Shown: piece after piece, positions 5,139-24,323 of the stretch | How the letters are laid out: the number at the start of each line of letters is the position of its first letter | Position numbering within the stretch: the first letter of the stretch is position 1 | The notes under the pieces: generated by a model | Told to the model about the DNA's origin: nothing | Seen by the model: the letters and a program-made list of their open reading frames with translations, nothing else | Database searches by the model: none | Virus record (IMG/VR): IMGVR_UViG_3300037491_000131 | Span: 1-24,323 of that record | Strand: one strand, 5' to 3' | Source of the DNA: a virus | DNA length: 24,323 nucleotides | Made by a program: the position numbers and the translations under genes

Positions 5139-5332
5139 CCCTCCCCCTTGTGGGGAGGGTCGACCCGCATAGCCGGCGCTGCGCGCCGGCGTTCTTCATA
5201 GAAAAAAACGGGCGCGCGGAGCGCGCCCTATGGCGAAGCGAAGGCGGGTCGGGGTGGGGGTCGTTGTTTGTTTGCTCGATCGCGCCACCCCCACCCCTAA
5301 CCCCTCCCCACAAGGGGGAGGGGAACCGCGGC
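5139..5332. repeat. Long intergenic palindrome, CTCCCCCTTGTGGGGAGGG family
   Basis: The left end is a CCCTCCC/GGGAGGG hairpin and the right end is CCCCTCCCCACAAGGGGGAG, so the whole 190-base stretch folds back on itself. Inside are smaller hairpins, such as CGGCGC/GCGCCG near 5174 and GGGCGCGC/GCGCGCCC near 5210. The same family occurs at 18305-18478. It separates the EPVR repeat gene from the gene at 5341. Confidence 0.8.
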
Positions 5333-5340
5333 GCCGTGCC

Positions 5341-8708: not shown

Positions 8709-8716
8709 GCAAAACT

Positions 8717-8798
8717 GTCATCGCGAGCGAAGCGAAGCGATCCAGGGACAGCGTGTGACGCCCTGGATTGCTTCGGCGCTTCGCGCCTCGCAATGACG
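8717..8798. repeat. Intergenic palindrome, CATCGCGAGCGAAGCG family
   Basis: TCATCGCGAGCGAAGCGAAG at the left pairs with the CTTCGCGCCTCGCAATGACG type of arm at the right, and CCAGGG/CCCTGG closes the inner stem. I recall this family as common in Bradyrhizobium-type chromosomes. A shorter member is at 17957-17990. Its right end contains an ATG that could be mistaken for the start of the next gene. Confidence 0.85.
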
Positions 8799-10165: not shown

Positions 10166-11332
10166 ATGGCTTATTCGATGTCCTACACGTCGCTGATCGG
10201 CGACAAAAACACCGCAGGCTCGATCGCCCGCTGGGTGAACTACGCCAAGCTCGACGCCGATCAGATCCTGCAGGAGGCGCAGTCGCTGCTCTATTCCATG
10301 CTGCGCGTGCGGGAGATGCGCGCGCACTTTAACTTCAGCACGATCGTAGGGCAGGACCGCGTCGCGTTGCCGTCAGGCTTCCTCGATCCGATCGGCAAGA
10401 TCGCCATGCTCGGGACGGGAGCGAAGATCGAGCAGCGCTACCCGAACTTCATCCAGCGCCGCCGCACCTATACGGAGACGACGGGGAACCTCGGCAGCAA
10501 CCCGTTCACCACCAACAATCCTGGTCCCTTCGCGCTCATCGTCAACGTCAACCTGCCGAACCATGGCTTTTCCGACGGCTCTGTCTTCTTCACCACTGGC
10601 GCCATGGCGTTCAATGGGGTGACCATCGTCGGCACCTTCGACGTGGTCGCCCTCATCGATGCCAACAATTTCTGGATCGACATCACCCCGCTGGGAACGA
10701 CGCCGACGGCAGGCGGCAGCGGGGGAACGATCAGCGGCTCTGTCACCGCAACGTCGGCCGGGGCCGGCAACGTGATCCAATTGACGCTTGGCGCCGGCGA
10801 CGCGGCATCGGTGGCCGGGTTCACGAGTGGAAATACCGTCGTCGTGAACGGCGTCGGCGGGACGACCGAAGCGAACGGCACCTGGGTCATCGACGTCATC
10901 ATAAGCGGCGGTCTCGGCCGCATCAACCTGCGCGGCTCGACTTTCGTCCATAGCTGGACGTCCGGAGGAACGGTCACAACGACGGTTGCTTACATCTGCG
11001 ACAACCTCGTCCAGGGCATGCCGCTCCACTGGGGCGTGTGGGACGAGACCATCTTCTTCGACGTGGCGTTCAGCCAGCCGACCAACTGCAATCTGCAATA
11101 TTTCAGGTCACTGCCGATCCTCTCCGCGGCGAACCCGACCAACTTCCTCACCACCCGCTATCCGCACCTGCTGCGCAAGGCGTGCACCGCGCAGGCCTGG
11201 GATTTCCTGCGCAACAACACCGAATACCAGAAGGACGTGGCCGCGCTCACTGCGCTCGTCGAACAGACCAACGCGGAAGCTGATCTGCTCTACCGCGGGG
11301 CGGCGTTCGACACGTATCTGCATGATGAGTGA
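10166..11332 (+). CDS. Head-tail adaptor (connector) protein with inserted beta domains, 388 aa
   Basis: The N-terminal ~100 residues (SIARWVNYAKLDADQILQEA, then LLYSMLRVREMR) resemble adaptor or connector proteins that sit under the portal of short-tailed phages. The C-terminal helix (PHLLRKACTAQAWDFLRNNT) matches the other half of such a fold. Between them, about residues 113-280, lie two beta modules that resemble the FCCH-type domain often annotated in phage proteins: NHGFSDGSVFFTTGAMAFNG and GFTSGNTVVVNGVGG with GTWVIDV. The adaptor would join the portal ring to the nozzle protein encoded at 13040. The ribosome binding site is weak (AGGGCGG). The insertion makes the protein longer than simple adaptors (~200-250 aa). 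Confidence 0.75.
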   Translation: MAYSMSYTSLIGDKNTAGSIARWVNYAKLDADQILQEAQSLLYSMLRVREMRAHFNFSTIVGQDRVALPSGFLDPIGKIAMLGTGAKIEQRYPNFIQRRRTYTETTGNLGSNPFTTNNPGPFALIVNVNLPNHGFSDGSVFFTTGAMAFNGVTIVGTFDVVALIDANNFWIDITPLGTTPTAGGSGGTISGSVTATSAGAGNVIQLTLGAGDAASVAGFTSGNTVVVNGVGGTTEANGTWVIDVIISGGLGRINLRGSTFVHSWTSGGTVTTTVAYICDNLVQGMPLHWGVWDETIFFDVAFSQPTNCNLQYFRSLPILSAANPTNFLTTRYPHLLRKACTAQAWDFLRNNTEYQKDVAALTALVEQTNAEADLLYRGAAFDTYLHDE

Positions 11333-13006: not shown

Positions 13007-13039
13007 CCGCGCAAGCCGCGGATCATCGGCAACGCAAAA

Positions 13040-14881
13040 ATGCCCGAGCCCATCCCCATTCCCATCACGCCGCCGCCCGGCATCGTGAAGACCGAGACCG
13101 GCAAGGTGGCGGCGGGCCGCTGGACCGACGGCGACGCCGTCCATTTCGTGCGCGGCATGCCGCAGAAGATCGGCGGCTGGGTGCGCCAGACCACCACGCC
13201 GACGTCGGGCCAGCCGCGCGCATCCCACGCCTGGCGCGACAATTCCGCCAACCAGTTCATCGCCGTCGGCACCTATCGCAAGCTCTACGTCTACGACTCG
13301 AGCCTGGCGCAGAACGACGTGACGCCGTTCCGGCGCACCTCCGGGGGAATCGGCGGCGGCTCGGCGCTGACCAACCCGTTCACCACCAACACGACCGCCG
13401 GCACCGCGTCGCAGGTGAGCGTGCACGACGTAGGCCACGGCGCGAACATCGGCGACACCGTCATCTATACCTCGGTCGGCGCCGGCGTGGGCGGCATCGC
13501 CGCGGCGCAGCTCACCGGCACCTTCCTGGTCCTCGGCGTCACCGACGTCGACCATTACGTGTTCGACTGCGGGGTCGCCGCCTCCTCGGCCGCGACCGGC
13601 GGCGGCACGGTGCAGTACGAATACGAGATCACCGTCGGCACCGAGCTCGGCGCCGAGGGCACCGGCTTCGGGGTCGGGCAGTTCGGCGCCGGCACCTGGG
13701 GCACCGCGCGCTCGGGCTCGACCATCTTCATCGAGCCGCGGGTGTGGTCGCTCGACCACTTCGGCCAGCTTCTGCTCGCCTCCTACAACACCGGGCAGAT
13801 TTACGTGTTCGACCCGACCCAGAGCCAGCCGTGGCCGCGCGCGGTCCTGGTCAACGCGTCGTCCGGCGACAGCGCGGCGCCCACCACCTGCCGCGCCATG
13901 TTCGTCACCCAGGAGCGCTTCGTGGTCGCGCTCTTGACCGGCATGGTGGTGCAGTGGTCGTCGCAGGGCACCTACGACACCTGGACGCCGTCCGCCACCA
14001 ACACCGCCAACAGCCGTACCTTGACAGTCGGCACCAAGCTCGTGGCCGGGCGCGTGCTCGGGCCGTTCCTCTCGCTCATCTGGTCCGACGCCGCCTGCTA
14101 TCTCATGCAGTGGACCGGCAGCCTCTACGTCTACAACACGTCGATCCTGGCGACCGAGTGCGGCCTCATCTCGCCCGGCGCCGCGGTCACCGTCAACGGC
14201 GTCGCCTACTGGATGGGGTGGGACAATTTCTTCATGTACGACGGCGCGGTGCACCCGATCCCCAACGTCGAGGACATCCGCAAGTTCGTGTTCGACCAGG
14301 TCGACAAGATCGTCGGGCCGTATCAGTGCCACGCCGTCTACGTGCCGAAGTTCAACCGCATCGACTTCCACTACACCACCACCGGCAGCGCCAACCCGAC
14401 GCTGTTGGCGCGCTACCACATCAACGATGAGGTGTGGGCGCCGGGCGTAGCCGGCGGCACCCGCTGCTCGGGCACGCATTTCGCCCAAGGGGATACGCGG
14501 GTCATCGCCTTCGACGTGGACGGCTACGGCTACCAGCACGACAACGGCAACGACGCCAACGGCGCCGCCCTGCCGTGGACGCTGACCTTGGCGCCGTTCG
14601 CGCTCGATAAGTCGCTCTCGGTCTGCGAGATCGACGGCATCGAATCCGACTTCAAGGACCAGGCCGGGACGATCACTTTTACTTTGTCGACCTACGACCG
14701 GCTGGGCGATGCTTCACCGGAAGACAGCGAGACCGAGACCGTCTCGCCCGGCGACCAGCTCATCGACTGGCATTCGTCCGGGCGCTATCTCAGCCTCGCG
14801 ATCTCGTCGTCGGATTTGGGCAGCTATTTCCGCTGGGGCGTGCCGCAGGCCTACGTGAAGCCGCTGGGGCTGCGGCGGTGA
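13040..14881 (+). CDS. Tail nozzle / packaged-DNA stabilisation protein, 613 aa
   Basis: The opening (MPEPIPIPITPPPGIVKTET, then GRWTDGDAVHFVRGMPQKIG) is typical of P22 gp10-like stabilisation and T7 gp12-like nozzle proteins of short-tailed phages. Beta-propeller-type repeats follow, such as QFIAVGTYRKLYVYD, LLLASYNTGQIYVFD and RFVVALLTGMVVQWSS. An inserted region at about residues 105-200 (NPFTTNTTAGTASQVSVHDV) begins with the same NPFTT stretch as the insertion in the adaptor at 10166. Later parts (YWMGWDNFFMYDGAVHPIPN, RYLSLAISSSDLGSYFRWG) match the same family. It plugs the virion channel and forms the tail tip. The ribosome binding site is weak. It is the last virion gene before the host-like island. 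Confidence 0.85.
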   Translation: MPEPIPIPITPPPGIVKTETGKVAAGRWTDGDAVHFVRGMPQKIGGWVRQTTTPTSGQPRASHAWRDNSANQFIAVGTYRKLYVYDSSLAQNDVTPFRRTSGGIGGGSALTNPFTTNTTAGTASQVSVHDVGHGANIGDTVIYTSVGAGVGGIAAAQLTGTFLVLGVTDVDHYVFDCGVAASSAATGGGTVQYEYEITVGTELGAEGTGFGVGQFGAGTWGTARSGSTIFIEPRVWSLDHFGQLLLASYNTGQIYVFDPTQSQPWPRAVLVNASSGDSAAPTTCRAMFVTQERFVVALLTGMVVQWSSQGTYDTWTPSATNTANSRTLTVGTKLVAGRVLGPFLSLIWSDAACYLMQWTGSLYVYNTSILATECGLISPGAAVTVNGVAYWMGWDNFFMYDGAVHPIPNVEDIRKFVFDQVDKIVGPYQCHAVYVPKFNRIDFHYTTTGSANPTLLARYHINDEVWAPGVAGGTRCSGTHFAQGDTRVIAFDVDGYGYQHDNGNDANGAALPWTLTLAPFALDKSLSVCEIDGIESDFKDQAGTITFTLSTYDRLGDASPEDSETETVSPGDQLIDWHSSGRYLSLAISSSDLGSYFRWGVPQAYVKPLGLRR

Positions 14882-14883
14882 GG

Positions 14884-14987
14884 CGTAGGGTGGGTTAGCG
14901 GGCGAAGCCCGCGTAACCCACCAAACAGTCGTGCAACCGGCAATACCGCCGGTGGGTTACGCGCCTTCGGCGCTAACCCACCCTACG
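14884..14987. repeat. Intergenic palindrome, CGTAGGGTGGGTTA family
   Basis: CGTAGGGTGGGTTAGCGGGC at the left is mirrored by GCGCTAACCCACCCTACG at the right, with an inner GTAACCCACC/GGTGGGTTAC pair. It lies between convergent genes (nozzle and the leftward secreted protein) and could end transcription from both sides. Confidence 0.88.
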
Positions 14988-14995
14988 CTCTCTTC

Positions 14996-15445
14996 TCAAC
15001 ACCGCGTCACCGACACCTTCACCACGCCGCCGCCTTCGCCCGGCACGTCGTAGGCGCGCGACTGACAGCCGAGGCGCTCCGACGGCGGGGACGCCGGCGG
15101 CGCAAACACGGTGGCGCCCGGGCCGGCGGCCGTTCCGGTGACGTCGTTCGGATAATAAGTGCCGCCGTAGCTCCCGGCGTCGCCCCCGTAGCCGTAGCCC
15201 GTGTTCGAGCCGTTGCCGCGGTGGAAATTCCAGCGGTGGAACCGCCACGCGAACCGCGCCGGCCAGCGCCGCGCAAAGCCGTGCGCCAACCCATGATGCA
15301 CCGCGGGACGGGGGAAGCCGAACACCGGCCCGACGTGGATGGCGCCGTGGAATCCGCCGCCGCCGCCGCGCGCGAGCGCGCCGGCCGGAACGAGCAGCGT
15401 CGCGGCGATCGCGGCGAGCGCCGCCGTCTTCGACCAGATCTGCAT
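14996..15445 (-). CDS. Secreted glycine/histidine-rich protein, 149 aa, host-like
   Basis: A clear signal peptide opens the protein (MQIWSKTAALAAIAATLLVP, cleavage probably after GALA). The mature part is Gly-, His-, Phe- and Arg-rich (RGGGGGFHGAIHVGPVFGFP, then HHGLAHGFARRWPARFAWRF). The C-terminus is more ordered, with two cysteines (ERLGCQSRAYDVPGEGGG, VTRC). AGGAG before the ATG supports the start. Such small exported proteins are common in Bradyrhizobium-type chromosomes and unusual in phage virion modules. It is divergent from the similar secreted gene at 15719. Function unknown; envelope or extracellular location is inferred from the signal peptide. Confidence 0.75.
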   Translation of the reverse strand: MQIWSKTAALAAIAATLLVPAGALARGGGGGFHGAIHVGPVFGFPRPAVHHGLAHGFARRWPARFAWRFHRWNFHRGNGSNTGYGYGGDAGSYGGTYYPNDVTGTAAGPGATVFAPPASPPSERLGCQSRAYDVPGEGGGVVKVSVTRC

Positions 15446-15560
15446 ACGCCTTACTCCTGCTACGCCTTGTTAATCTTTCGTTCACCTTGTCCCTTCGGCG
15501 CGGGGGTGTCCAGGTGCTCCAACCCGCGTGGTTAATGGGTGAGCGCCGTTCGTCGTTCGT

Positions 15561-15644
15561 AGGATGGGTTTCGCTGCAGCGAAACCCATCCTGCCTGCTG
15601 TTCTTTTTTGCGATCCGTCGCGGACTGCGCTCGGCGACGGATCG
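15561..15644. repeat. Two palindromes in a divergent promoter region
   Basis: A perfect 32-base palindrome lies at 15561-15592 (arms AGGATGGGTTTCGCTG and its complement). A second hairpin lies at 15611-15644 (arms CGATCCGTCGC and GCGACGGATCG). The second matches the element at 18415-18445, but with the loop in the reverse-complement orientation. The remaining bases of 15446-15718 carry no gene and should include the promoters of the two divergent secreted proteins; no clear promoter boxes were found. Confidence 0.85.
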
Positions 15645-15718
15645 CGGCGCCCACACGCTTTCGTTACAGGAACAATCGCCCGCGGCAGACGTTTTTATTC
15701 AAACCACAGGAGGTTTGC

Positions 15719-16228
15719 ATGAAACGCGTATTGCTGGTCGGCGCGGCGGCGCTGTTGATCGCCGGCGCCATGACGGGCGCTGCCTCCGCCCGCGGCATGG
15801 GCGGCGGTGGCGGTGGCGGCGGCGGTCACGCCGCGATGGGTGGCGGCGGCGGCCACGCCGCGATGGGTGGTGGTGGCGGCGGCGGCTTTGGCCGCGGCGG
15901 CGGCGGCTTTGCTGCACCGCGCGCGTCGGTCGGCGGTGGCTTCGCTGCGCCGCGCGCGTCGGTCGGCGGCGGGTTTGCCCGCGGCGGCACCGTGAACGGT
16001 CGGTTCGCGCGCGGCAACGTGGCGCAGGGCAATTGGGGCGCGCGCAACTGGAACGGCGGCTGGGGCGGCCGGCACTTTCACCACCGCCACGGCTTCTTCC
16101 CGTTCGCCGGCGTAGCGGCGGGCGTCGCCATCGGCAGCGGCTTCGCCTACGACTATCCGGACTACGACTACTACGGCGACGCGTGCATCCAGTGGAACGG
16201 CTGGGCCTGGGTCAACGTGTGCTACTGA
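15719..16228 (+). CDS. Secreted glycine-rich repeat protein, 169 aa, host-like
   Basis: A perfect AGGAGG lies five bases before the ATG. The signal peptide is MKRVLLVGAAALLIAGAMTG, with cleavage likely after AASA. The mature protein begins with poly-glycine blocks containing GHAAMGGGGG twice and FAAPRASVGGG twice. An Asn/Trp/His-rich segment (WGARNWNGGWGGRHFHHRHG), a hydrophobic stretch (FPFAGVAAGVAIGSGFA) and a Tyr/Asp-rich region follow. It ends with CIQWNGWAWVNVCY, where the two Cys could form a disulfide. This ending is familiar from exported proteins of Bradyrhizobium-like bacteria. A structural or surface role is likely; the exact function is unknown. It looks like host DNA, not phage. 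Confidence 0.8.
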   Translation: MKRVLLVGAAALLIAGAMTGAASARGMGGGGGGGGGHAAMGGGGGHAAMGGGGGGGFGRGGGGFAAPRASVGGGFAAPRASVGGGFARGGTVNGRFARGNVAQGNWGARNWNGGWGGRHFHHRHGFFPFAGVAAGVAIGSGFAYDYPDYDYYGDACIQWNGWAWVNVCY

Positions 16229-16243
16229 GGCCGGATTCGCAGA

Positions 16244-16480
16244 GCATTGTTCCCCGGATGGGGGCCCCCCGCGACGCGAGCGTCGCGGGGACCCCTCGGC
16301 GCAGCGTGCAGCGCAGCGGAACGGTGCGCCGCTGATCCGGGGTCCGGGTTCATGCGCATCCGTCGCGGACAACGCGAGATCCCCGCGCAGGCGGGGACGG
16401 ATGCGAGGGTGGCCACCGGATCTGCGCCGCACAACTTTGCGGTGCAACGCGCCCGGGGAACAAGTTCCCTGGGGTCGCGG
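16244..16480. repeat. Nested palindrome cluster in a 590-base gene-free stretch
   Basis: Several inverted repeats are stacked: CCCCGGAT/ATCCGGGG (about 16252 and 16336), CCCCGCGACG/CGTCGCGGGG (16269-16291), CATCCGTCGC with GACGGATGCG, and ATCCCCGCG/CGGGGA. They are related to the families at 15611 and 18415. From 16481 to 16600 I see no gene; a repeat-free promoter region for the regulator at 16822 follows. Confidence 0.7.
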
Positions 16481-16600
16481 ATGAAGGAGTCGGGAAGCGG
16501 ACCTTCGTCGTTTTGCTCGACCGGATTCCCAATGCCCACCCCGGCCGCACCTTCCCCAGCGTCATGTCGCTTCTGCGGGATTTTTCTAGCCTATTACCGG

Positions 16601-16628
16601 GCGTTATACGTTGTTTAGGCGTTATACG
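16601..16628. promoter_or_regulatory. Candidate operator: direct repeat GCGTTATACG, 18-base spacing
   Basis: GCGTTATACG occurs at 16601-16610 and again at 16619-16628. A TTGACA follows at about 16639, but no good -10 box was found at the usual distance. Two identical sites almost two helical turns apart, 190 bases upstream of an XRE regulator, fit an autoregulatory operator. This is inference from position. Confidence 0.35.
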
Positions 16629-16821
16629 AACCGCCGATTGACAATTGCGCTCCTGCATTGTTGGTGCGCCTCCCGATAAGCGCGCTCGTTCGCGCGGCGA
16701 ACCTGTGCTATCGCTGGCGCACGTTCGCCGTGAGGCGAGTCGCGAACGGGCGCACCGGACCGTCACTGCGACGCGACGTTGCGGCAAAACAACACTGTGG
16801 CAAGAGAAGGAGAATGCTTCG

Positions 16822-17280
16822 ATGGCGGCCGAGGCAAGAGACCCGCGGAGACCCGACAACGTCGACGTCGAGGTCGGACGGCTGGTGCGCGTTCAACGCA
16901 TCGCGAAGGGGCTGTCGCAAACCGAGCTTGGAAACGAGATCGGCGTCACGTTCCAGCAGGTGCAGAAATACGAGAGCGGCGCAAACCGCATCTCCATGGG
17001 CCGCCTGACCAGGATCGGGCGCGTGCTCGGGGTGCAGGTGACCTACCTGCTCGGAGCGAACCGGCGCGCGAGTCCGGTCGCAATCAACCCGAAGGAGCAG
17101 GCCAAATTCTCCGAGGCGGTGGGCATGCTCGGCCGCATCGGCGCGTTGCGGCTGCTCAGGGCGTTTTCCGCGATTCCCAACAAGCCGCCCTCGCTGCGCG
17201 AAAGCATCGTGCAGATGGTCGAGGGCGCGGCGTCGGCGTCGGCGCGCGAGGTGGCGCGCAAGAAGGCCCGCCGCCATTAG
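16822..17280 (+). CDS. XRE-family transcriptional regulator, 152 aa
   Basis: An HTH_3/Cro-CI type DNA-binding domain spans about residues 18-77. Helices are visible as GRLVRVQRIAKGLSQTELGN and GVTFQQVQKYESGANRISMG, with the second helix pair carrying the recognition helix. The pattern VGxxVRxxRxxxGxSQTELG...FQQVQKYExGxNR is typical of alphaproteobacterial chromosomal XRE regulators. The C-terminal part has a helix (MLGRIGALRLLRAFSAIPN) and a basic end (AREVARKKARRH). The frame is open from 16645, but AAGGAG before ATG 16822 and the domain layout favour this start. It could control its own promoter through the direct repeat at 16601. It looks host-derived, not like a phage repressor of the CI-protease type. 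Confidence 0.85.
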   Translation: MAAEARDPRRPDNVDVEVGRLVRVQRIAKGLSQTELGNEIGVTFQQVQKYESGANRISMGRLTRIGRVLGVQVTYLLGANRRASPVAINPKEQAKFSEAVGMLGRIGALRLLRAFSAIPNKPPSLRESIVQMVEGAASASAREVARKKARRH

Positions 17281-17282
17281 CC

Positions 17283-17357
17283 AGTGATCAGTGATCAGTA
17301 ATCAGACCAGCGTTCGGTAGTCAGAGGCTCATTCTGATCACTGATTACTGATTACTG
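17283..17357. repeat. Intergenic palindrome, ATCAGTGATCAG family
   Basis: CAGTGATCAGTGATCAGTAA at the left is mirrored by TGATCACTGATTACTGATTA at the right. It lies exactly between the stop codons of two convergent genes (17280 and 17358), so it may act as a two-way terminator. Confidence 0.85.
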
Positions 17358-17873
17358 TTACGCGGCCATGCCGACTGACGAACCCTGCGCTTCGCGCAGC
17401 AGCTTGGTGCGGATCGCGTGCTCGATGTTGCGGAGCGCCGCTTCCGCCTCGAGCGAGCGCGCCTCGGCCGCCTGCGCGCGCGCTTCCGCGGCGGCCGCCT
17501 CGGACTCGGCGGCGGCGATGCGCGCCTCGGCGCGCCTGAGCGCCTCGACCGCTTCCTGTAGCCGCGCCGCGGTGTCGGCGATCGCCTCCCGGTGCGCCGT
17601 TTCGGCCGCCTGGATGCGCGCTTCCGCCGCGTGCAGCTTCTCGATCGCGCCGCGCACCAGCGATTTCGCCCGCGCCTCCGTGTCGTTGGCGCGCTCCTCG
17701 ATGTCGTTGATGGCGTCGGCGGCCTGATAGACCAGCTCGAGCGCGGCGGCGCCGCGGCTCTTCGCCGGACCTTGCGGCGGCCGCTCCAGGTTGACGACGT
17801 TGCGCGGCGCGCCGGGCGCGCGGCCGAATTGATCGCGCACGGGCCGGCGCGGCCAGTTGGGGTCCTGGGACAT
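17358..17873 (-). CDS. Alanine-rich coiled-coil protein, 171 aa, host-like
   Basis: After a basic, Pro-rich N-terminus (MSQDPNWPRRPVRDQFGRAP), residues ~45-155 form an almost unbroken Ala/Glu/Arg coiled coil with heptad character (AEARIQAAETAHREAIADTA, AESEAAAAEARAQAAEARSL). The C-terminal piece (NIEHAIRTKLLREAQGSS) is a separate short helix. Similar small coiled-coil proteins are encoded in Bradyrhizobium-like chromosomes without known function. The start at 17873 has GAAAGGG upstream. It is convergent with the XRE gene. A structural or scaffolding role is possible but not shown. Confidence 0.7.
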   Translation of the reverse strand: MSQDPNWPRRPVRDQFGRAPGAPRNVVNLERPPQGPAKSRGAAALELVYQAADAINDIEERANDTEARAKSLVRGAIEKLHAAEARIQAAETAHREAIADTAARLQEAVEALRRAEARIAAAESEAAAAEARAQAAEARSLEAEAALRNIEHAIRTKLLREAQGSSVGMAA

Positions 17874-17956
17874 CGGTCGAACCCTTTCGAAAACGTTAAG
17901 TCCGCCGATCTTTAGCAGCAGATGGTGAACGGGTTGTTAACGTAAGGCCGCCGTTC

Positions 17957-17990
17957 GTCATTGCTTCGTCGCTACGCTCCTCGCAATGAC
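17957..17990. repeat. Short palindrome, CATTGCGAGGAGCG family
   Basis: GTCATTGCTTCG at the left pairs with CTCCTCGCAATGAC at the right around GTCGCTACG. It is a small member of the family seen at 8717-8798 and marks the border where phage genes resume. Confidence 0.75.
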
Positions 17991-18016
17991 GCCGGCGTGG
18001 GCACGGAGTCCCTCAA

Positions 18017-18283
18017 ATGAAACCCATCGCCCTGCCGCCGGTGCCGCCGGGCTCCGATCCGGCCGCCCAGTTCGCCTGGATCAAGGCCTGCCTGCAGCAG
18101 ATCGAGCGGGCGTCCCAGGAAGAGCCGGCGCAGATTTTCGACAGCTATTCGACGGATGCAACGCCAACCGCCACGAGGCAGCTCCTTGTCACGTCGCCGA
18201 CGCAAGCGAACATCGTCGCCGTCCTCGCCACCCTCATCGCCGATTTCCGCGCCCGCGGCGTCAAGCGAATGGGGCCGACCTGA
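18017..18283 (+). CDS. Small conserved phage protein, 88 aa
   Basis: The protein begins MKPIALPPVPPGSDPAAQFA and continues WIKACLQQIERASQEEPAQI, a start I recall from small proteins in short-tailed and rhizobial prophages. A Thr/Ala-rich middle is followed by a helix (QANIVAVLATLIADFRARG). No Cys or membrane helix is present. The purine-rich GGAG before the ATG lies about ten bases upstream. It marks the resumption of phage-type genes after the host-like island. Function unknown. Confidence 0.7.
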   Translation: MKPIALPPVPPGSDPAAQFAWIKACLQQIERASQEEPAQIFDSYSTDATPTATRQLLVTSPTQANIVAVLATLIADFRARGVKRMGPT

Positions 18284-18304
18284 CGAGCACACTCGCGCCA
18301 CAGC

Positions 18305-18478
18305 GCTCCCTCCCCCCTTGTGGGGGAGGGATGGGGAGGGGGGTGGCGAGATGGCGCGCGACAACAACGACCCCCACCCCGGCGCCTGCGGCGCCGACCC
18401 TCCCCAAGTTGTCGATCCGTCGCGAGCGCAGTCCGCGACGGATCGGAAGAAGCTGGGGGAGGGTGGAGCAGGGGCGCG
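18305..18478. repeat. Long palindrome, CTCCCCCTTGTGGGGGAGGG family
   Basis: The left end is a CTCCCCC/GGGGGAG hairpin and the right end AAGCTGGGGGAGGGTGGAGC mirrors it over 170 bases. A hairpin with arms GATCCGTCGCG and CGCGACGGATC at 18415-18445 is nested inside, which suggests that one element was inserted into another. The right half lies within the N-terminal part of the acetyltransferase frame. Confidence 0.8.
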
Positions 18479-18944
18479 AGCACAGCGAACAATTCGCGCC
18501 GCGGACAGCGACGCCGACGCACTTGCCATCCATCGTTTCCTCGCCACCGTGGCGACGCCGGTGCTCCATTGTGCGATCAATCCTGCGAAGTCGCTCGCCG
18601 AGGTGCGCCGCGTCGTCACCGATCGTGACTACGGCTTTGCCCTCATGGCGCTCGAGCGCGATGCCCTCGTCGGCACCATCGGGGCGATCTTCGTGCCGTG
18701 GTGGTACGGCGACGATCACTTCTTCACCGACCGCTGGTTCTTCGCGCTGCCGCGGTCCCCGGGCACTTCGTCCCGGGGATGGGCCGGTCCGCGATTGCTG
18801 GCCGAGGCCGACGCGGTCGCGCGCGAGGTCGGCGTGCCGCTGATCGTGAACTTGAAACAGCGGCGCACCACGGCCGCGGTGACCTTCGTCAAGCCGGTGG
18901 TGTTGGGCGTGGACCATCGCGCCACCCACTCGACGTCATCCTGA
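18351..18944 (+). CDS. GNAT-like acetyltransferase altered by palindromic elements, 197 aa
   Basis: From about residue 46 the protein reads like a phage GNAT protein: TIRAADSDADALAIHRFLAT, then LHCAINPAKSLAEVRRVVT and VPWWYGDDHFFTDRWFFALP. A helix (AGPRLLAEADAVAREVGVPL) and a last strand follow. Residues 1-45 are encoded by a palindromic repeat and have no domain character. No ATG or GTG closer to the domain is in frame, so ATG 18351 (GGAGGGG upstream) is used. A second element inserts SPGTSSRG at residues 136-143, just where the acetyl-CoA loop (Q/RxxGxG/A) is expected; only GWAGPRLL remains there. The end (THSTSS) and stop lie in a third repeat. Substrate unknown; activity may be lost. Confidence 0.65.
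   Translation: MARDNNDPHPGACGADPPQVVDPSRAQSATDRKKLGEGGAGARAQRTIRAADSDADALAIHRFLATVATPVLHCAINPAKSLAEVRRVVTDRDYGFALMALERDALVGTIGAIFVPWWYGDDHFFTDRWFFALPRSPGTSSRGWAGPRLLAEADAVAREVGVPLIVNLKQRRTTAAVTFVKPVVLGVDHRATHSTSS
18756..18779. repeat. CCCCGGG palindrome inside the acetyltransferase gene
   Basis: The arms TCCCCGGG (18756-18763) and CCCGGGGA (18772-18779) surround CACTTCGT. The 24 bases keep the reading frame and code for SPGTSSRG. Related CCCGGG hairpins are inside the gene at 3843 and in the cluster at 16244. Confidence 0.75.
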
Positions 18945-19050
18945 GGTGCGACCCCGGCCTTGAGCCGGGGGAGCCTCGAAGGATGGAAGCACGCACGGAG
19001 CAAGCTTCCACCCTTCGAGGCGCGCCTGCGGCGCGCACCTCAGGGTGACG
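18934..19050. repeat. Intergenic palindrome, CATCCTGAGGTGCG family
   Basis: CGTCATCCTGAGGTGCG at the left is mirrored by CGCACCTCAGGGTGACG at the right, with inner CCTCGAAGG/CCTTCGAGG arms and an inner GCTTCCA/TGGAAGC pair. It supplies the last codons and the stop of the acetyltransferase gene. The same family is at 9998-10149. Confidence 0.85.
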
Positions 19051-19063
19051 GCGGAGCGGGTTG

Positions 19064-19318
19064 AGCGGCCAACAGTCCGATCTCTCCATAGCGGCCGCGC
19101 GCTGCCGGGGCATCAAAAACCAAGCGCGCCGGCGAGCGCGGCAGAGTCTAAAGCGGCAGTCCACTCTCTCCACCGCGGCCGCCCGCTGCCCGCGCATGCA
19201 AAACCAAGCGCGCGGGCGAGGGCGGCAGGAGTCCAAAGCGGCAGTCCACTCGCGCCACAGCGGCCGCGCGCTGCCGGCGCATCAAAAACCAAGCGCGCCG
19301 GCGAGCGCGGCAGGGACA
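19064..19318. repeat. Three tandem ~86-bp repeats ahead of an ejection-type gene
   Basis: Units start at about 19064, 19152 and 19237, each with AGCGGC at the left. Each unit carries a GCGGCCGC-type motif, the core GCATCAAAAACCAAGCGCG (GCATGCAAAACC in unit two) and a GAGCGCGGCAG-like right end. The right end can pair with the GCTGCCGG region to form a hairpin. The next gene begins in GGGACATCAAAATG, which looks like the start of a fourth core. A single related copy is at 1381-1429. On the minus strand the units code for a repeated Arg-rich peptide that I regard as incidental. Confidence 0.88.
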
Positions 19319-19323
19319 TCAAA

Positions 19324-20364
19324 ATGTGCTTCGGCATGCAGGCGACGCAACAACAGACGAACACGCCCTCGCCGTTCGTCCAGGGCGCGGGGCAGACCGC
19401 GTTCAACTTCGCCCAGAATCTCGCCACGTCGCCGTTCGATGCGCCGTTGCAGGGAGTGGCCGGATTCACGCCGCAGCAGAGCCAGGCCTTCTCCCAGATC
19501 GGCAACCTCGCCAACGCGCCCAACGCCAACAATCCGTTCTATTCGACCATCGCCAACGATTACGCCAATTACGGCGCGGCGCCGGCCGCGACGATCACTG
19601 CGCCGAGCGTGCTCGGCGGCGGCGTCGACCCGACGACGGCTGGTCTTGGCGCCTATATCGACCCGAACCTGCAGCTCGAGCTCAACCCGACCCTGGCGGA
19701 GATCACGCGCCAGGCCGACATCGCCAAGACCGGTCCGGGCGGCGTCGGCGCGGCGGCGACCGCGGCGGGCGCCTTTGGCGACGCGCGCCAGGGGGTGGAG
19801 AACGCCAACGTCGACGAAGCGGCCATGCGCCAAGCGGCGCAGGCGACCGGACAGGCCTATCAGAACGCGTTCCAGAACGCCGCCAACCTGCGCGGCATCG
19901 ACCTGTCCAACTTGATGAATGTCCAGTCCGCCAATGCGGCGCTGCGCCAGCAGCAATTGCAGAACATGCTCGGCTCCGGCAACGCGCTCACCAACCTGGC
20001 GCAATACACCACCGGAACGGGCCTCAACCTCGCCCAGGCGCTGGGCCAGGCCGGCACCCAGCAGCAGCAGCTGGCGCAGCAGCAGCTCGGCAATCGCTAC
20101 AACCAGCAGCTCCAGGACCTGCTCGGGCCCTATCAGTATCAGCTGCCGGCGCTCAACTCGACGCTGTCGGCGCTGACCCCGTCGCAGCCGTCGACCCAGA
20201 CCATCCAGCAGCCGAACAACGCCGGATGGCAGCTCGCCGGCGCGCTCGGCGGCGCCTTGTTCGGCGGGCTCGGCACCGGCTTCGGCCAGGGCGTGGGGCT
20301 CGGGGCCTTCGGCAACCTGTTCGGCAGCGGCAAGGCCGGTGGCCAGTTCATGCAGAACGATTGA
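19324..20364 (+). CDS. Putative internal virion / DNA ejection protein, 346 aa
   Basis: The protein starts MCFGMQATQQQTNTPSPFVQ, then QGAGQTAFNFAQNLATSPFD. The middle is an Ala/Gln/Asn-rich helical region (GAFGDARQGVENANVDEAAM, RQAAQATGQAYQNAFQNAAN, LGQAGTQQQQLAQQQLGNRY). It ends with a glycine-rich hydrophobic segment (GWQLAGALGGALFGGLGTGF) that could insert into membranes. This build is usual for ejection or internal core proteins of short-tailed phages, which leave the virion with the DNA. AGGGA precedes the ATG by about eight bases. It is followed at 21 bases by a second protein of similar type. The class is inferred from composition and context; homology was not tested. Confidence 0.7.
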   Translation: MCFGMQATQQQTNTPSPFVQGAGQTAFNFAQNLATSPFDAPLQGVAGFTPQQSQAFSQIGNLANAPNANNPFYSTIANDYANYGAAPAATITAPSVLGGGVDPTTAGLGAYIDPNLQLELNPTLAEITRQADIAKTGPGGVGAAATAAGAFGDARQGVENANVDEAAMRQAAQATGQAYQNAFQNAANLRGIDLSNLMNVQSANAALRQQQLQNMLGSGNALTNLAQYTTGTGLNLAQALGQAGTQQQQLAQQQLGNRYNQQLQDLLGPYQYQLPALNSTLSALTPSQPSTQTIQQPNNAGWQLAGALGGALFGGLGTGFGQGVGLGAFGNLFGSGKAGGQFMQND

Positions 20365-20385
20365 TCGCAATTCGATGAGGTCGCC

Positions 20386-21243
20386 ATGAACTCCACTTTC
20401 GGCACCGACGTGCTCGGCCTGGATTACCTGCCGCCGTCGCCGCTCTATCCGATCGGCTCGTTGCTGCCGCCGGACGCGGGCGCGCCGCCGGCAGCCGCGC
20501 CGCCTGCCTCCGCGGTCGATCCATCGCAGGCGCTTGGAACGACGCCGCCCGCGCCGGCTGGTCCCGGTCCGGGCGGCCTCAATCTTGGGCCGCTGCTCCG
20601 CAGCGCCCTCGCGCCGCAGACGCAGAACGCCGGCGGCTTGCTTGGATCGCTCGGGCTCAACGCCGACCAGGCGGGCCGCATCATGTCCGGCCTCGGCGGC
20701 GGGCTGTCGAGCGCGGGCCAGAACTGGAACAAGCCGGCCATGGCCGCCTTCGCCGGCGGCGCCGGCGCGGCGATCCAGGGCGGCCAGCAGTTTCAGAACC
20801 TGCAGCAGGACGCCAAGCTCAAGGCGCTCAACGCCGCCATCGCCGCCTGGAAGATCGGCGACATGGCGAGCTATCACCAGGCACTGGCGAATTATCGCGC
20901 CGCGGTGACGCAGCAGCGGCTGGCCTCGACGAGCCCGCGCATCGCCTCGCAAGGCGGGCTGCCGGCCGCTTCGGTCAACCCAAACAACGAGGCGCCGGCG
21001 CCCGCTGCGCAACCCTCCGGACAGGTCAGCACGCCCGGGCAAGGTGCCGGCGGCGGTCCATTTGCTCCGCCGTCGATCGTCTATGGAAATGGGCCCGGTG
21101 CCGGCGCTGCGGCGGCCGCGCCCCCGACCGCCGCGTCGTCCGATCCGCTCGCCCAGGCGCGCGATGCGATCGCCCGCGGCGCCTCGCGCGCCGCGGCGAT
21201 CGCGCGGCTGCGCGACAACGGCATCGATCCCGCGGGCCTGTGA
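20386..21243 (+). CDS. Putative second internal virion / ejection protein, 285 aa
   Basis: The first ~90 residues are Pro/Ala/Gly-rich (LPPDAGAPPAAAPPASAVD). A small domain follows (GRIMSGLGGGLSSAGQNWNK, then AAFAGGAGAAIQGGQQFQNL), then a helix (DAKLKALNAAIAAWKIGDMA) and a further low-complexity region. The C-terminus (AQARDAIARGASRAAAIARL, ending RDNGIDPAGL) matches a motif I recall at the ends of phage virion proteins, with the pattern A-x-x-A-I-A-x-G-A-x-R-x-A-x-x-x-R-L-x-x-N-G-I-D-P. A GAGG lies shortly before the ATG. It is probably co-translated with 19324 and 21250. The role is inferred. Confidence 0.7.
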   Translation: MNSTFGTDVLGLDYLPPSPLYPIGSLLPPDAGAPPAAAPPASAVDPSQALGTTPPAPAGPGPGGLNLGPLLRSALAPQTQNAGGLLGSLGLNADQAGRIMSGLGGGLSSAGQNWNKPAMAAFAGGAGAAIQGGQQFQNLQQDAKLKALNAAIAAWKIGDMASYHQALANYRAAVTQQRLASTSPRIASQGGLPAASVNPNNEAPAPAAQPSGQVSTPGQGAGGGPFAPPSIVYGNGPGAGAAAAAPPTAASSDPLAQARDAIARGASRAAAIARLRDNGIDPAGL

Positions 21244-21249
21244 CGTCCC

Positions 21250-22887
21250 ATGTTCGAGGATCTGATTCCATCGGCGCTGGCAGCCCCGGCGCCGCCGCCC
21301 GGCCTGTTCGACGATCTCATTCCGGCGTCCGACGTTCCCTCCGGCTACGGGGCAGCGATCACGGACATCCCGCGCGAGATCGCTACGACCACCGGCGAGG
21401 CGTGGGAAGGCGTTCGCCGCGCGTTGCCGTCGTCGCTCGGGGGCGAGCGCAACATGGCCGCCGAAGGCCCGCTGGAAAGCCTCACGAATACCGGCAAAGG
21501 GTTGGTTGCTGCCGCGACGCTGCCGCTCGCGCCTGTCCAAGGTGTGTGGCGTTCGCTCATCGGCCACCCGATGGTCGAGGCCGATCAGGCGCTGCGCGCC
21601 GGCGCGGTCGCCCTTTACGGCGAAGACAAGGTGCGCGCGGCGGAGCAGGCGCGCGGTCTCAGCCCCGGCGGAATGACCTATGACGAAGCGCGCCGTAACG
21701 CCGATACCGCGCTTTCGCTGATCGCGCCGCGCGGCGGACTCGGACTCGCGCGCCCCGCGGTAAGACCGCCGCCCCCAGCATCACCCGCCGCGCCCACGCC
21801 GGACTCGGCGGCGTCCGTCCGTGTCCCGGAGCCTGAACTTCCGCCCCTGCACGAGGGGGCGCAGATCATCGACCACGGCCCGCTCGGGCCGGTTCTCGAT
21901 GGTTATCAGAATCGCTGGGCGGACGCAGTCGACTGGCTGCGGCGCGCGCAGACCGGAGACGCGCGCGGCGTGCTCGAACACCCCGACGTGCCCGACGGCC
22001 GCATCGACGTGATCTGGGGCGCGCACAATCCTCAAACCGACAAAGGCTTCGGCCTAGCACATATCGCCGCCAAGCATGCGGAGGTGCTGCCCGACCTGCC
22101 GGAGCGGCTTGCCCGCATGCGAAAGGTCGCGGTCGACGAAGCGGCCGGCCGCATCTATCTGGAATCGCCGGACGGCAACGAGTTCGCGGCGATCTCGCAA
22201 AATTGGCACTTCGCGCCGAAGAATTGGCTGCTCACCGCCTTCGACAGACGTGCGCGGGGAAGTGGAAGCGGAGGAGTGGTACCGGCCGGGCCAGCCGCCG
22301 CGCCGACTGCGGCGGGGAGTGGTGGCCCTGGTGATCAGTCCGGCTTAAAGCCCGCGGCTGACCTACGCTCGCCGCTTTCTCTTTACTACGGCGGCGAGGG
22401 AGCAGGACCGACTCCAACGATAGCACGCGCGCCGGCGCCGCCGCAACCGGGAACGCCAGCGCCGCGCGATCTTCCTCAGCAAACAGAAGATCAAAGCCGG
22501 CGCGGACGGGGTAGTATGGGGAGCCCGCCCGACTTGCTGGGCCCGACTCGATCCTCGGGCACGCCGGGTAGCGGAAATGTAGGGGTGCCCTCTGCCGACA
22601 ACAAGTTCGAAGTCGCCCCAGCGCCCGCGCCCCTGTCGCAACAGCAAATCGCCGGCAACCGCGCGAAAGTCGTCGACTCCCTTCACCGCGTCGGCGTTCC
22701 GCCCGACCGCGTCGATCCGGCCGACATCGAATGTGCCGCGCGGCTGGTGACGCGCCGGGATGTGTTGACGCTCGATGCGTTCAAGCGCGCCGTCATCGGC
22801 GACGCGCTCGAGCGCGGTTTCGCGACGCCGCAAGAGGTCGATCAGGTCTACGGAAAAGGCACAGCGGATGAATACCGAGGCTCATAA
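21250..22887 (+). CDS. Polyvalent virion protein with PBECR-like nuclease domain, 545 aa
   Basis: The N-terminus has a doubled short motif, FEDLIP (residues 2-7) and FDDLIP (20-25), as seen in phage polyvalent or ejected proteins. A helical region (~35-160) and a Pro/Ala linker follow. Residues about 248-335 resemble the phage Barnase-EndoU-ColicinE5/D-RelE-like (PBECR) fold: GRIDVIWGAHN, then AHIAAKH (H271, K275, H276), a long helix (DLPERLARMRKVAVDEA), strands (GRIYLESPDGNEFAAIS) and NWLLTAFD (T329). These are the likely catalytic and substrate-binding positions. A long low-complexity linker (~340-455) leads to a C-terminal helical domain (NRAKVVDSLHRVGVPPDRVD onward). It probably acts as an RNA-targeting toxin or effector delivered with the DNA; activity is inferred. 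No immunity gene is obvious. Confidence 0.7.
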   Translation: MFEDLIPSALAAPAPPPGLFDDLIPASDVPSGYGAAITDIPREIATTTGEAWEGVRRALPSSLGGERNMAAEGPLESLTNTGKGLVAAATLPLAPVQGVWRSLIGHPMVEADQALRAGAVALYGEDKVRAAEQARGLSPGGMTYDEARRNADTALSLIAPRGGLGLARPAVRPPPPASPAAPTPDSAASVRVPEPELPPLHEGAQIIDHGPLGPVLDGYQNRWADAVDWLRRAQTGDARGVLEHPDVPDGRIDVIWGAHNPQTDKGFGLAHIAAKHAEVLPDLPERLARMRKVAVDEAAGRIYLESPDGNEFAAISQNWHFAPKNWLLTAFDRRARGSGSGGVVPAGPAAAPTAAGSGGPGDQSGLKPAADLRSPLSLYYGGEGAGPTPTIARAPAPPQPGTPAPRDLPQQTEDQSRRGRGSMGSPPDLLGPTRSSGTPGSGNVGVPSADNKFEVAPAPAPLSQQQIAGNRAKVVDSLHRVGVPPDRVDPADIECAARLVTRRDVLTLDAFKRAVIGDALERGFATPQEVDQVYGKGTADEYRGS

Positions 22888-23134
22888 GCATCTGCGAATG
22901 GGGCAGCTGCTTCGCCGCAAGGCGTTGCACCTGGCCGATCCGTCGGCGATGCGCCGCAAAGCCAACAGCTTCCTCGCCCTGGCGAAGATGGCGGCAATGT
23001 CGGCGAAACGCCAAACGGTGGCCCCGCCGCCGAACGTCAGCCGGCCGGCCCCGCCGAGCCTCCCGCCGCCCCGGGCACCATTTCGCACGACGCGGCTCGA
23101 TCCGAGGAACCTGTTCGGGCCGATGCGTAGCTGA
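22868..23134 (+). CDS. Small basic phage protein, 88 aa
   Basis: It overlaps the end of the polyvalent protein gene by 20 bases in another frame, with AAGG ahead of the ATG. The protein starts MNTEAHKHLRMGQLLRRKAL and has a strongly basic helical half (HLADPSAMRRKANSFLALAK, MAAMSAKRQ), followed by a Pro-rich tail (RPAPPSLPPPRAPFRTTRLD). Overlap suggests translational coupling with the polyvalent protein. It could be a chaperone, a packaging partner or an immunity protein for the nuclease, but nothing in the sequence settles this. It is the last intact gene before the degenerate region. Confidence 0.6.
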   Translation: MNTEAHKHLRMGQLLRRKALHLADPSAMRRKANSFLALAKMAAMSAKRQTVAPPPNVSRPAPPSLPPPRAPFRTTRLDPRNLFGPMRS

Positions 23135-23241
23135 CCGCGCGACCAACGCGACGAATAACTCGCTGTGCGCGCCACGACGGCAGATCGACCGCTTACCTCG
23201 GCCGTACGGACCTCGGACGGGAAGGCATCGGGTATTGGAAG

Positions 23242-23730
23242 CGCATCGACGGGCGCATTCTTTATGTCGAAGAAGTGCGAAGTGGCCGCAACGCGCTCGC
23301 TGCGGCGTCGATGCGCAAATATCGCGCGGACGACGGAGGCGCCGGGACGACCACATGGCGCTGAGGCCCCGCGTCGAACGTCCGAAACGCTTCCCGGCGG
23401 ATCGGATGTATACCTGCCGCCGGCTGGCGGCAACTCGCCAGCGAACACCACAGCCGTTACTCAAGGCCAATCTAGACCACCAAACATCGTCCCGCGATAA
23501 CCGCGCGATCTGCCCGAGCTGCATGAGGCCACGACGGTTTTGGGGGACTCATCGACGGCGTTCTTTATGTCGAAGAAGTCCGAACCGGACGCAAGATGCT
23601 CGCCGCGGAATCCGTGCGCAAATATCGCCTGCGAAGGACGAGGCGCCGGGACGACCGCATGGCCCTTAGGCCCGTCTCCGGTTGGCGGCAACCCGTAAGC
23701 GGAATCCGCAGCCGTTGATCAAGCGCAAGC
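23242..23730 (+). pseudogene. Degenerate direct duplication of a small gene (two copies)
   Basis: Copy 1 (23242-23466) and copy 2 (23548-23730) share TTCTTTATGTCGAAGAAGT (23258 and 23561) and GCGCAAATATCGC (23313 and 23616), 303 bases apart. Both code for IDGxLYVEEVRxGRxxLAAxSxRKYR in matching frames. After that the copies differ in frame: copy 1 stops early after TTTWR, while copy 2 continues RRRDDRMALRP. Downstream, GGCGGCAAC(T/C)CG and CAGCCGTT(A/G) again match, now about 258 bases apart, so copy 2 carries a deletion of about 45 bases. No good start codon or ribosome binding site is present, so I treat the stretch from 23135 to 23775 as decayed coding sequence. The ancestral protein is not recognised. 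Confidence 0.6.
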
Positions 23731-23775
23731 CGGCCATCCGTCAGCGCCTCGTCGAAGAACCCATCATCCAGCCCC

Positions 23776-23800
23776 AGGGCCGCGTGCGGCCCTCTTTCAT
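23776..23800 (+). terminator. Probable intrinsic terminator
   Basis: AGGGCCGC and GCGGCCCT form a GC-rich stem with a very small loop, followed by the pyrimidine-rich CTTTCATTT. It lies just upstream of the HNH gene and would stop transcripts coming from the ejection genes. Confidence 0.6.
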
Positions 23801-23813
23801 TTGCGAGGCTGCC

Positions 23814-24323
23814 GTGCAACGCTGCCCGCGCCTGACCTTCGAGCGGCTGCACGAGATTTTACACTACCATCCGAAGACCGGGATATTTCGCTGGCGCCAG
23901 CGCGTGAGCTACGCGATCAAGGTCGGCGACGTGGCCGGCTCCCTGAACAAGACCAGCGGCTACCGGCTCATCCATATCGGCGGCCGCAATTACAAGGCGC
24001 ACCAGCTCGCTTGGCTTTATGTGACCGGCACATGGTGCCGGCCGATGGTCGATCATCGCGATCGCGACCGGGCGAACAACCGCTGGAGCAACCTGCGCCG
24101 CGCGACCGCGTCGACGAACGCCGCCAACCGCGGCCGCCCGCGCACCAACGCGTCCGGGTTCAAGGGCGTGCATCGGCGCCGCGACACCGGCAAGTGGCGC
24201 GCCCAGATCTGGAAGGACGGACGCGCCCGCTATCTCGGGCAGTTCGCAACCCCGCAGGAGGCGCACGCAATCTACGTCCGCGCCGCGCGGGACTTGTTCG
24301 GCGAGTTCGCGCGGGAGGACTAA
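23814..24323 (+). CDS. HNH endonuclease with AP2-type DNA-binding domain, 169 aa
   Basis: From GTG 23814 (GAGG five bases ahead) the protein starts MQRCPRLTFERLHEILHYHP, a normal opening for phage HNH-AP2 proteins. The frame is open further upstream to TTG 23682, but that part crosses the terminator. An N-terminal strand region (KTGIFRWRQR, GDVAGSLNKTSGYRLIHIGG) is followed by the HNH core: HQLAWLYVTG, MVDHRDRDRANNRWSNLRRA and TNAANRG, with the D-H pair and the two N residues as catalytic or metal ligands. The C-terminal AP2-like domain reads SGFKGVHRRRDTGKWRAQIW and ARYLGQFATPQEAHAIYVRA. It is a homing-type nuclease, often found as a free-standing mobile gene in phage genomes. The stop is at the last base of the window. 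Confidence 0.88.
   Translation: MQRCPRLTFERLHEILHYHPKTGIFRWRQRVSYAIKVGDVAGSLNKTSGYRLIHIGGRNYKAHQLAWLYVTGTWCRPMVDHRDRDRANNRWSNLRRATASTNAANRGRPRTNASGFKGVHRRRDTGKWRAQIWKDGRARYLGQFATPQEAHAIYVRAARDLFGEFARED

What the first reader, a model, noticed from the sequence alone, without database searches (positions are those of the whole stretch)
21250..22887. Candidate injected toxin: PBECR-like nuclease inside a polyvalent virion protein
The protein combines doubled F(E/D)DLIP motifs at its N-terminus, a long helical part, and a PBECR-like domain with H271, K275, H276 and a WLLTAFD ending. It follows two ejection-type genes, so it may enter the host with the DNA and cut RNA. No antitoxin is recognised, except possibly the small basic gene overlapping its 3' end.
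Basis: partly seen in the sequence, partly recalled or inferred. Interest (0 to 1): 0.75.

Follow-up and report, generated by a model that had tools for sequence, protein, structure and literature searches.

The report
Swappable phage-injected RNase-like effector gene
This gene encodes a protein that a short-tailed phage probably injects into bacteria with its DNA; its front end is a standard tag shared by dozens of unrelated phages, while its predicted RNA-cutting end has replaced a different one whose broken remains still lie downstream.

Summary
Window 21250-22887 encodes a 545-aa protein with a PBECR1 domain (Pfam PF18809, above its cut-off), a confident AlphaFold model and an intact predicted active site (H276, T329). 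It is not strictly polyvalent, and no antitoxin was found.

The surroundings add more. The doubled F(E/D)DLIP start is a recurring N-terminal head in dozens of phage contigs, in front of different effector domains (PBECR1, PBECR3, ART, InPase, zeta toxin, ddrB-ParB, transglycosylase). The gene directly upstream ends in a matching ~33-aa C-tail (ARDAIARGAPRDAVIxRLRxNGIDPSGL). Contigs selected on the tail alone carried the head in the next gene in 39 of 41 new cases.

A sister phage is 79-87% identical on both sides. Homology breaks just after the second FDDLIP, and there it carries PBECR3 instead of PBECR1. The window still holds a 47-aa orphan 3' end of that PBECR3 gene. So the gene is one allele of a cargo slot whose tip was exchanged, as in polymorphic toxins but without immunity genes.

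Virion packaging, RNA cleavage and tail-head docking are inferred, not shown. PBECR1 itself is known; I found no published description of the head/tail pair or the tip replacement.

The parts
20386..21243 (+). upstream ejection-type gene (285 aa) that ends in the C-tail
   Evidence: weak PHROG match to a pilot protein for DNA ejection at residues 229-280 (E 0.018); 64% identical relative in L193, in the same position
21142..21240 (+). C-tail: DPLAQARDAIARGASRAAAIARLRDNGIDPAGL, predicted two-helix hairpin
   Evidence: HMM trained without the window hits it at E 2.0e-14; AlphaFold helices 10-19 and 24-33 of a 41-residue stretch, pLDDT ~91-93 in the core
21250..22887 (+). effector gene: FDDLIP head, helical linker, PBECR1 tip, Pro-rich stretch and C-terminal end (545 aa)
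21253..21324 (+). tandem FEDLIP / FDDLIP head (residues 2-25)
   Evidence: synonymous codons vary freely in relatives, so the conservation is at protein level
21337..21732 (+). linker region (residues 30-161) shared with FDDLIP-headed proteins L228, L229, L242, L244, L250
   Evidence: BLASTP E 1e-6 to 3e-11
21856..22257 (+). PBECR1 domain (residues 203-336); H276, K324, W326, T329 conserved
   Evidence: Pfam; model pLDDT 93.4, pTM 0.86; conservation in 102 sequences
21327..23190 (+). segment with no nucleotide match to the sister phage L180, flanked by 79-87% identity: the exchanged tip
23194..23334 (+). orphan 3' end of a PBECR3 effector gene (47 aa, 79% identical to L180 residues 359-405)
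   Evidence: tblastn E 1.7e-22; Pfam PBECR3 profile positions 68-109 of 115, E 1.5e-5, below the family cut-off as expected for a fragment
23536..23628 (+). second, more decayed orphan PBECR3 3' end (32 aa, 66%)
   Evidence: tblastn E 1.6e-9; direct repeats 303 nt apart

Best explanation
The gene encodes a virion-carried, ejected effector of a short-tailed (podovirus-type) phage. The tandem FDDLIP head marks it as cargo for the ejection cassette, most likely by working together with the helical-hairpin C-tail of the ejection protein encoded directly upstream. On infection the protein enters the new host with the DNA, and its PBECR1 tip cuts RNA early in infection by a metal-independent mechanism using H276 and T329 (host mRNA, tRNA or a defence RNA; the target is unknown). 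The head is constant and the tip is exchangeable. In this lineage a PBECR1 body replaced an older PBECR3 body just behind the second FDDLIP, leaving the 3' end of the earlier PBECR3 gene stranded downstream. Shown by sequence: the domain, its conserved residues, the head/tail gene pair, the exchange and the orphan ends. Inferred: packaging, ejection, docking and RNase activity.
For: PBECR1 is above the Pfam cut-off. The active-site pair described by Iyer et al. 2017 (PMC5512222; His in the N-terminal helix, C-terminal Thr/Ser) is intact and nearly invariant. The model is confident; colicin D tRNase chains make up five of the first eight PDB matches, each weak (E 0.46-0.89). The position is that of known PBECR1 virion-cassette proteins. 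Head and tail co-occur: nearly every head-selected locus with upstream sequence has the tail in the gene before it, and 39 of 41 new tail-selected contigs (35 distinct) have the head in the next gene, mostly starting 2-6 nt after the stop. Three cultured Rhizobium phages read here show the same pair, one annotated 'putative injection protein'. Five isolates whose next gene lacks the FDDLIP head also lack the tail (best E 0.18). Heads front many effector types. The exchange and orphan ends are seen at nucleotide level.
Against: No virion proteomics for this phage or for any FDDLIP-headed protein was found here. The PDB fold match is weak, with no hit at E <= 0.001. No RNase assay of a PBECR1 domain was found in the papers looked at. 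Only one clear tip exchange was found; candidate pairs L203/L204 and L229/L244 proved to be related cargo. The docking of head and tail rests on co-occurrence alone.
Confidence: 0.7

Rival explanations
1. The PBECR1 tip is catalytically inert and serves as an RNA- or DNA-binding or structural part of the ejection apparatus, as Iyer et al. suggest for the inactive PBECR domain of Mu MuF.
For: The position is structural, and Iyer et al. report inactive PBECR domains. Position 271, K in 92 of 102 sequences, is H here.
Against: H276, K324, W326 and T329 are all kept, and H271 is the family's second choice (10 of 102). The tip has been exchanged as a unit with another PBECR domain and sits in a slot that otherwise holds enzymes.
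Confidence: 0.15
2. The FDDLIP head and the C-tail are an inherited gene junction or a recombination hotspot, not a delivery signal: the border sequences persist because modules are exchanged there.
For: The exchange endpoint lies right behind the second FDDLIP, so the head does mark the crossover in this case.
Against: Codons of FDDLIP vary freely in tail-selected relatives while the residues are kept. Where a related cargo body carries another head (Microcystis Mae-JY35 against RHEph18), the upstream tail is also different. Both fit selection on protein.
Confidence: 0.2
3. The downstream PBECR3 fragments are decayed tandem duplications of the 3' end of one gene, unrelated to tip replacement.
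For: The fragments form direct repeats about 300 nt apart that include sequence downstream of the gene, and L180 also has several besides its intact PBECR3 gene.
Against: The first orphan in the window is collinear with the functional 3' end in L180 (84% over 484 nt), so at least this one is the stump of a replaced gene. The other copies could be duplications.
Confidence: 0.2
4. It is a lysogenic toxin-antitoxin pair with the small basic gene at 22868-23134 as antitoxin.
For: The two genes overlap by 20 nt, which suggests translational coupling.
Against: The small protein has no relative in viral contigs and no family match. L009, the nearest PBECR1 relative, has no such gene next to it.
Confidence: 0.04

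Closest known systems
PBECR1 (Pfam PF18809) in phage polyvalent proteins, Iyer et al. 2017 (PMC5512222)
   Same: Same domain above the curated cut-off, same predicted His and Thr/Ser pair, same virion-gene context
   Different: A 545-aa protein with one recognisable enzymatic domain, where many relatives found here are 1,400-5,400-aa proteins; constant FDDLIP head and traceable tip replacement, not described in the passages read
Bordetella phage BPP-1 Bbp10 and Sinorhizobium phage PBC5 DarB-like protein
   Same: About 40% identity in the PBECR1 domain; Bbp10 lies behind an internal virion protein and a transglycosylase gene
   Different: Much larger proteins; no strict FDDLIP motif found in the stretches held
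Polymorphic toxins (CDI / Rhs)
   Same: Constant N-terminal part, exchangeable toxin tip, orphan tip remnants downstream (CDI/Rhs features from general knowledge)
   Different: Delivered by a phage virion (inferred), no immunity gene, short linear-motif head in place of a large stalk, orphan ends very short
Podovirus ejection proteins (P22 gp7/gp16/gp20, T7 gp14-gp16)
   Same: Gene position after the tail genes, mosaic evolution (PMC8954989)
   Different: Those form the DNA conduit; this protein carries a nuclease-type tip behind a short repeated head

Membership tests
PBECR1 (PF18809) | Profile score above the curated cut-off | tested here: met
   29.7 bits against 27.6, E 9.5e-7
[quoted passage not shown]
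   H276 (100 of 102 sequences) and T329 (T/S in 101 of 102); H276 lies at the break just after the helix at model residues 66-73
PBECR1 (PF18809) | BECR fold | tested here: inconclusive
   Confident model; matches nine phage models at E <= 0.001; colicin D chains lead the PDB list but at E 0.46-0.89
PBECR1 (PF18809) | RNase activity | not testable with these tools
   predicted only
Polyvalent protein | Two or more disparate domains in one polypeptide | tested here: not met
   Pfam recognises one domain, NCBIfam none
Ejected virion effector | Encoded in the virion/ejection gene cluster | tested here: met
   Synteny with L035, L180, L009; RHph_Y1_10 equivalent annotated as injection protein
Ejected virion effector | Present in virions and transferred to the host | not testable with these tools
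   Only indirect: phiM5 internal virion proteins in the corresponding region noted as detected in the particle proteome
Toxin-antitoxin module | Conserved neighbouring antitoxin | tested here: not met
Polymorphic toxin system | Constant N-terminus with exchanged C-terminal toxin and displaced remnants | tested here: met
Polymorphic toxin system | Cognate immunity gene | tested here: not met
   none recognised

The most novel reading that the evidence does not exclude
A general cargo-docking code for phage effector injection: a tandem FDDLIP head on the cargo and a matching helical-hairpin C-tail on the neighbouring ejection protein load diverse enzymes into virions. This makes the slot behind the head a place where effector tips are swapped, as in polymorphic toxins, leaving orphan ends behind.
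Probability: 0.42. Interest if true: 0.85.

Novelty: new variant of a known kind. Interest (0 to 1): 0.7.

Why it matters
How phages select which proteins to pack and inject is known for few phages. A short, recognisable head paired with a partner tail would give a sequence rule for finding injected effectors in metagenomes and a direct test of the packaging signal. The head could also be tried for loading chosen proteins into virions in laboratory phages. The tip replacement suggests that injected effectors turn over like polymorphic toxins, which fits an arms race with host RNA-based defences.

Tried and rejected
Full-length P0001 as a pattern query found no relatives in viral contigs, and the eight-sequence domain alignment was too diverse; the five-sequence one worked. 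tblastn with a synthetic FDDLIP peptide found nothing in the phage collection, perhaps because of the low-complexity filter. The C-tail query did work; its RcXuper hit (E 4, opposite strand to the annotated genes) was rejected. The small 3' ORF as antitoxin: no relatives. No PDB relative by sequence. L203/L204 and L229/L244 looked like further tip exchanges by nucleotide comparison but encode related cargo. No structured RNA family in 18000-24323. No paper in the library contains 'FDDLIP', though figures are not held. Foldseek of the C-tail against viral models gave no match at E <= 0.001, only a few probable relatives and chance matches.

Full report
What is there. The ORF at 21250-22887 (+, 545 aa) is intact and carries PBECR1 above the Pfam cut-off (29.7 bits against 27.6, E 9.5e-7, residues 250-334). 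tblastn against cultured phages finds the same domain, at about 40% identity for the best matches, in Sinorhizobium phage PBC5, Bordetella phage BPP-1 Bbp10, Pseudomonas phage Itty13 and Agrobacterium phage Atu_ph08. It is also found in 80 viral-contig loci and 66 genome loci. Over 102 sequences H276 (100), W326 (102), K324 (99) and T329 (T/S in 101) are conserved, and position 271 is K in 92 and H in 10. This fits the active-site description of Iyer et al. [quoted passage not shown] The AlphaFold model of the domain is confident (pLDDT 93.4, pTM 0.86). Its PDB neighbours are headed by colicin D chains, but weakly (E 0.46-0.89). Nine phage models match at E <= 0.001.

Setting. Upstream lie a P22-type tail stabilisation/needle-head protein (13040-14881; some relatives are annotated so), a small gene (18017-18283), an Ala/Gln-rich gene (19045-20364) and the 285-aa gene 20386-21243. 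The first three have counterparts in the same order in L035, where the place of the effector is taken by a 3,556-aa protein with FDDLIP motifs and PBECR1. In L009, the closest PBECR1 relative (48% over residues 177-380), the gene lies behind a 203-aa gene and an 867-aa gene that looks like a transglycosylase (my reading, not tested with a profile). In BPP-1 the homologue Bbp10 follows an internal virion protein and a transglycosylase.

The head. Doubled FDDLIP starts occur in many phage contigs. Alignments of the headed proteins from two searches (31 and 51 members) share almost nothing but the head. Behind it Pfam finds ddrB-ParB, RadC, SLT, LPD1, LPD5, PBECR3, ART-PolyVal, zeta toxin, SNF2 helicase, Eco57I and InPase. 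PHROGs adds DarB-like, endolysin and metallo-endopeptidase families. FDDLIP does not occur in the text of any paper held.

The tail. The gene directly before almost every headed gene ends in a ~33-aa stretch, consensus DPLAQARDAIARGAPRDAVIxRLRxNGIDPSGL. An HMM built without the window finds it there at E 2.0e-14. All matches below 1e-8 lie in head-bearing loci, nearly all at a C-terminus, and no PBECR1 locus without the head scores below 1e-3. In the reverse test, contigs were chosen by the tail alone. Of 41 contigs not seen before, 39 (35 distinct) have the head in the next gene, and one more has a FDDLP variant. Start codons lie mostly 2-6 nt after the stop. In the Rhizobium phages RHEph18, RHph_Y25 and RHph_Y1_10, found by the tail, the next gene starts with a doubled FDDLI/FDDLV-type head. 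In five isolates without the FDDLIP head (Mae-JY35, pCB2047-C, Pam5, VSN-002, phiM5) the tail is absent (best E 0.18). Mae-JY35 is telling: its cargo body is 51% identical to that of RHEph18, yet both the head and the upstream tail are different. Codons of the head vary freely, so selection is on protein. The tail is predicted as a two-helix hairpin.

The exchange. Contig IMGVR_UViG_3300037852_000519 (L180/L193/L200) matches the window at 79-87% nucleotide identity over most of 13025-21326 and again at about 84% from 23193. The match stops 76 nt into the effector gene, directly behind the second FDDLIP. L180 has there a 415-aa protein with three FDDLIP motifs and PBECR3 (PF18812, E 9.9e-18). 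The window keeps, at 23194-23334, a 47-aa piece 79% identical to the end of that PBECR3 protein (E 1.7e-22), recognised by the PBECR3 profile at positions 68-109 of 115 (E 1.5e-5). A second, shorter piece follows at 23536-23628, and L180 has further pieces of its own. Since the window has a PBECR3 end without a front and no PBECR1 remnant was seen in L180, the simplest reading is replacement of PBECR3 by PBECR1 in the window's lineage. Whether the further pieces are older replaced tips or duplications is open.

Mechanism. I propose a virion-carried effector, loaded through head and tail and cutting RNA early after entry. The sequence facts above are shown. Packaging, docking, ejection and RNase activity are inferred. 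The nearest analogy is polymorphic toxins, which this works like in tip exchange and remnants, but it is not a member: no immunity gene was found, and the delivery route appears to be a virion. The strict label 'polyvalent' is not met because only one enzymatic domain is recognised. The toxin-antitoxin reading fails for lack of a conserved partner.

Limits. The window is a 24.3-kb virus record, probably a fragment. Only one sister phage with an exchanged tip was found, and two other candidate pairs did not hold up. The head and tail searches used motif patterns, so the diversity of the pair is under-sampled. The phiM5 proteome note concerns a phage without the FDDLIP head. The claim that the head/tail pair is undescribed rests on the papers held here, without figures or subscription journals.

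Noticed in passing
window 23682-24323 (+): HNH endonuclease with an AP2-like DNA-binding domain directly behind the orphan PBECR3 ends (Pfam HNH_3 E 1.1e-11, AP2 2.2e-6); also conserved in L180. Whether it helps the exchange is unknown.
   Followed up: no
L260 14759, L256 3362, L258 3284: Other short heads on cargo genes in the same place: VELPDGSIAEFPDDTSPDVIKAALQKKFGG (phiM5), a similar PDG start (Mae-JY35), and a doubled LVPVDYDPFA/LVPVDHDPFA (Pam5), each behind an upstream gene without the NGIDPSGL tail. This hints at several head/tail types.
   Followed up: partly
L194 8087-10797: Two consecutive headed genes (FNDLVP, then FDDLIP/FDDLVP with an InPase domain) behind the same tail gene.
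   Followed up: partly
window 18934-19054, 5250-5336, 8709-8798, 16358-16402: Short stretches that match several non-orthologous places in the sister contig: dispersed repeats between genes, perhaps of host REP type.
   Followed up: no
window 16645-17280 (+): XRE/HTH_3 regulator with weak MqsA-antitoxin similarity inside the structural gene region.
   Followed up: no
window 10166-11332 and 7179-8165 (+): SU10 adaptor domain at the C-terminus of a longer protein and a Phage_capsid_3-type capsid gene.
   Followed up: no
window 22868-23134 (+): Small basic ORF (88 aa) overlapping the effector's stop by 20 nt, no relatives found; possibly brought in with the PBECR1 tip.
   Followed up: yes
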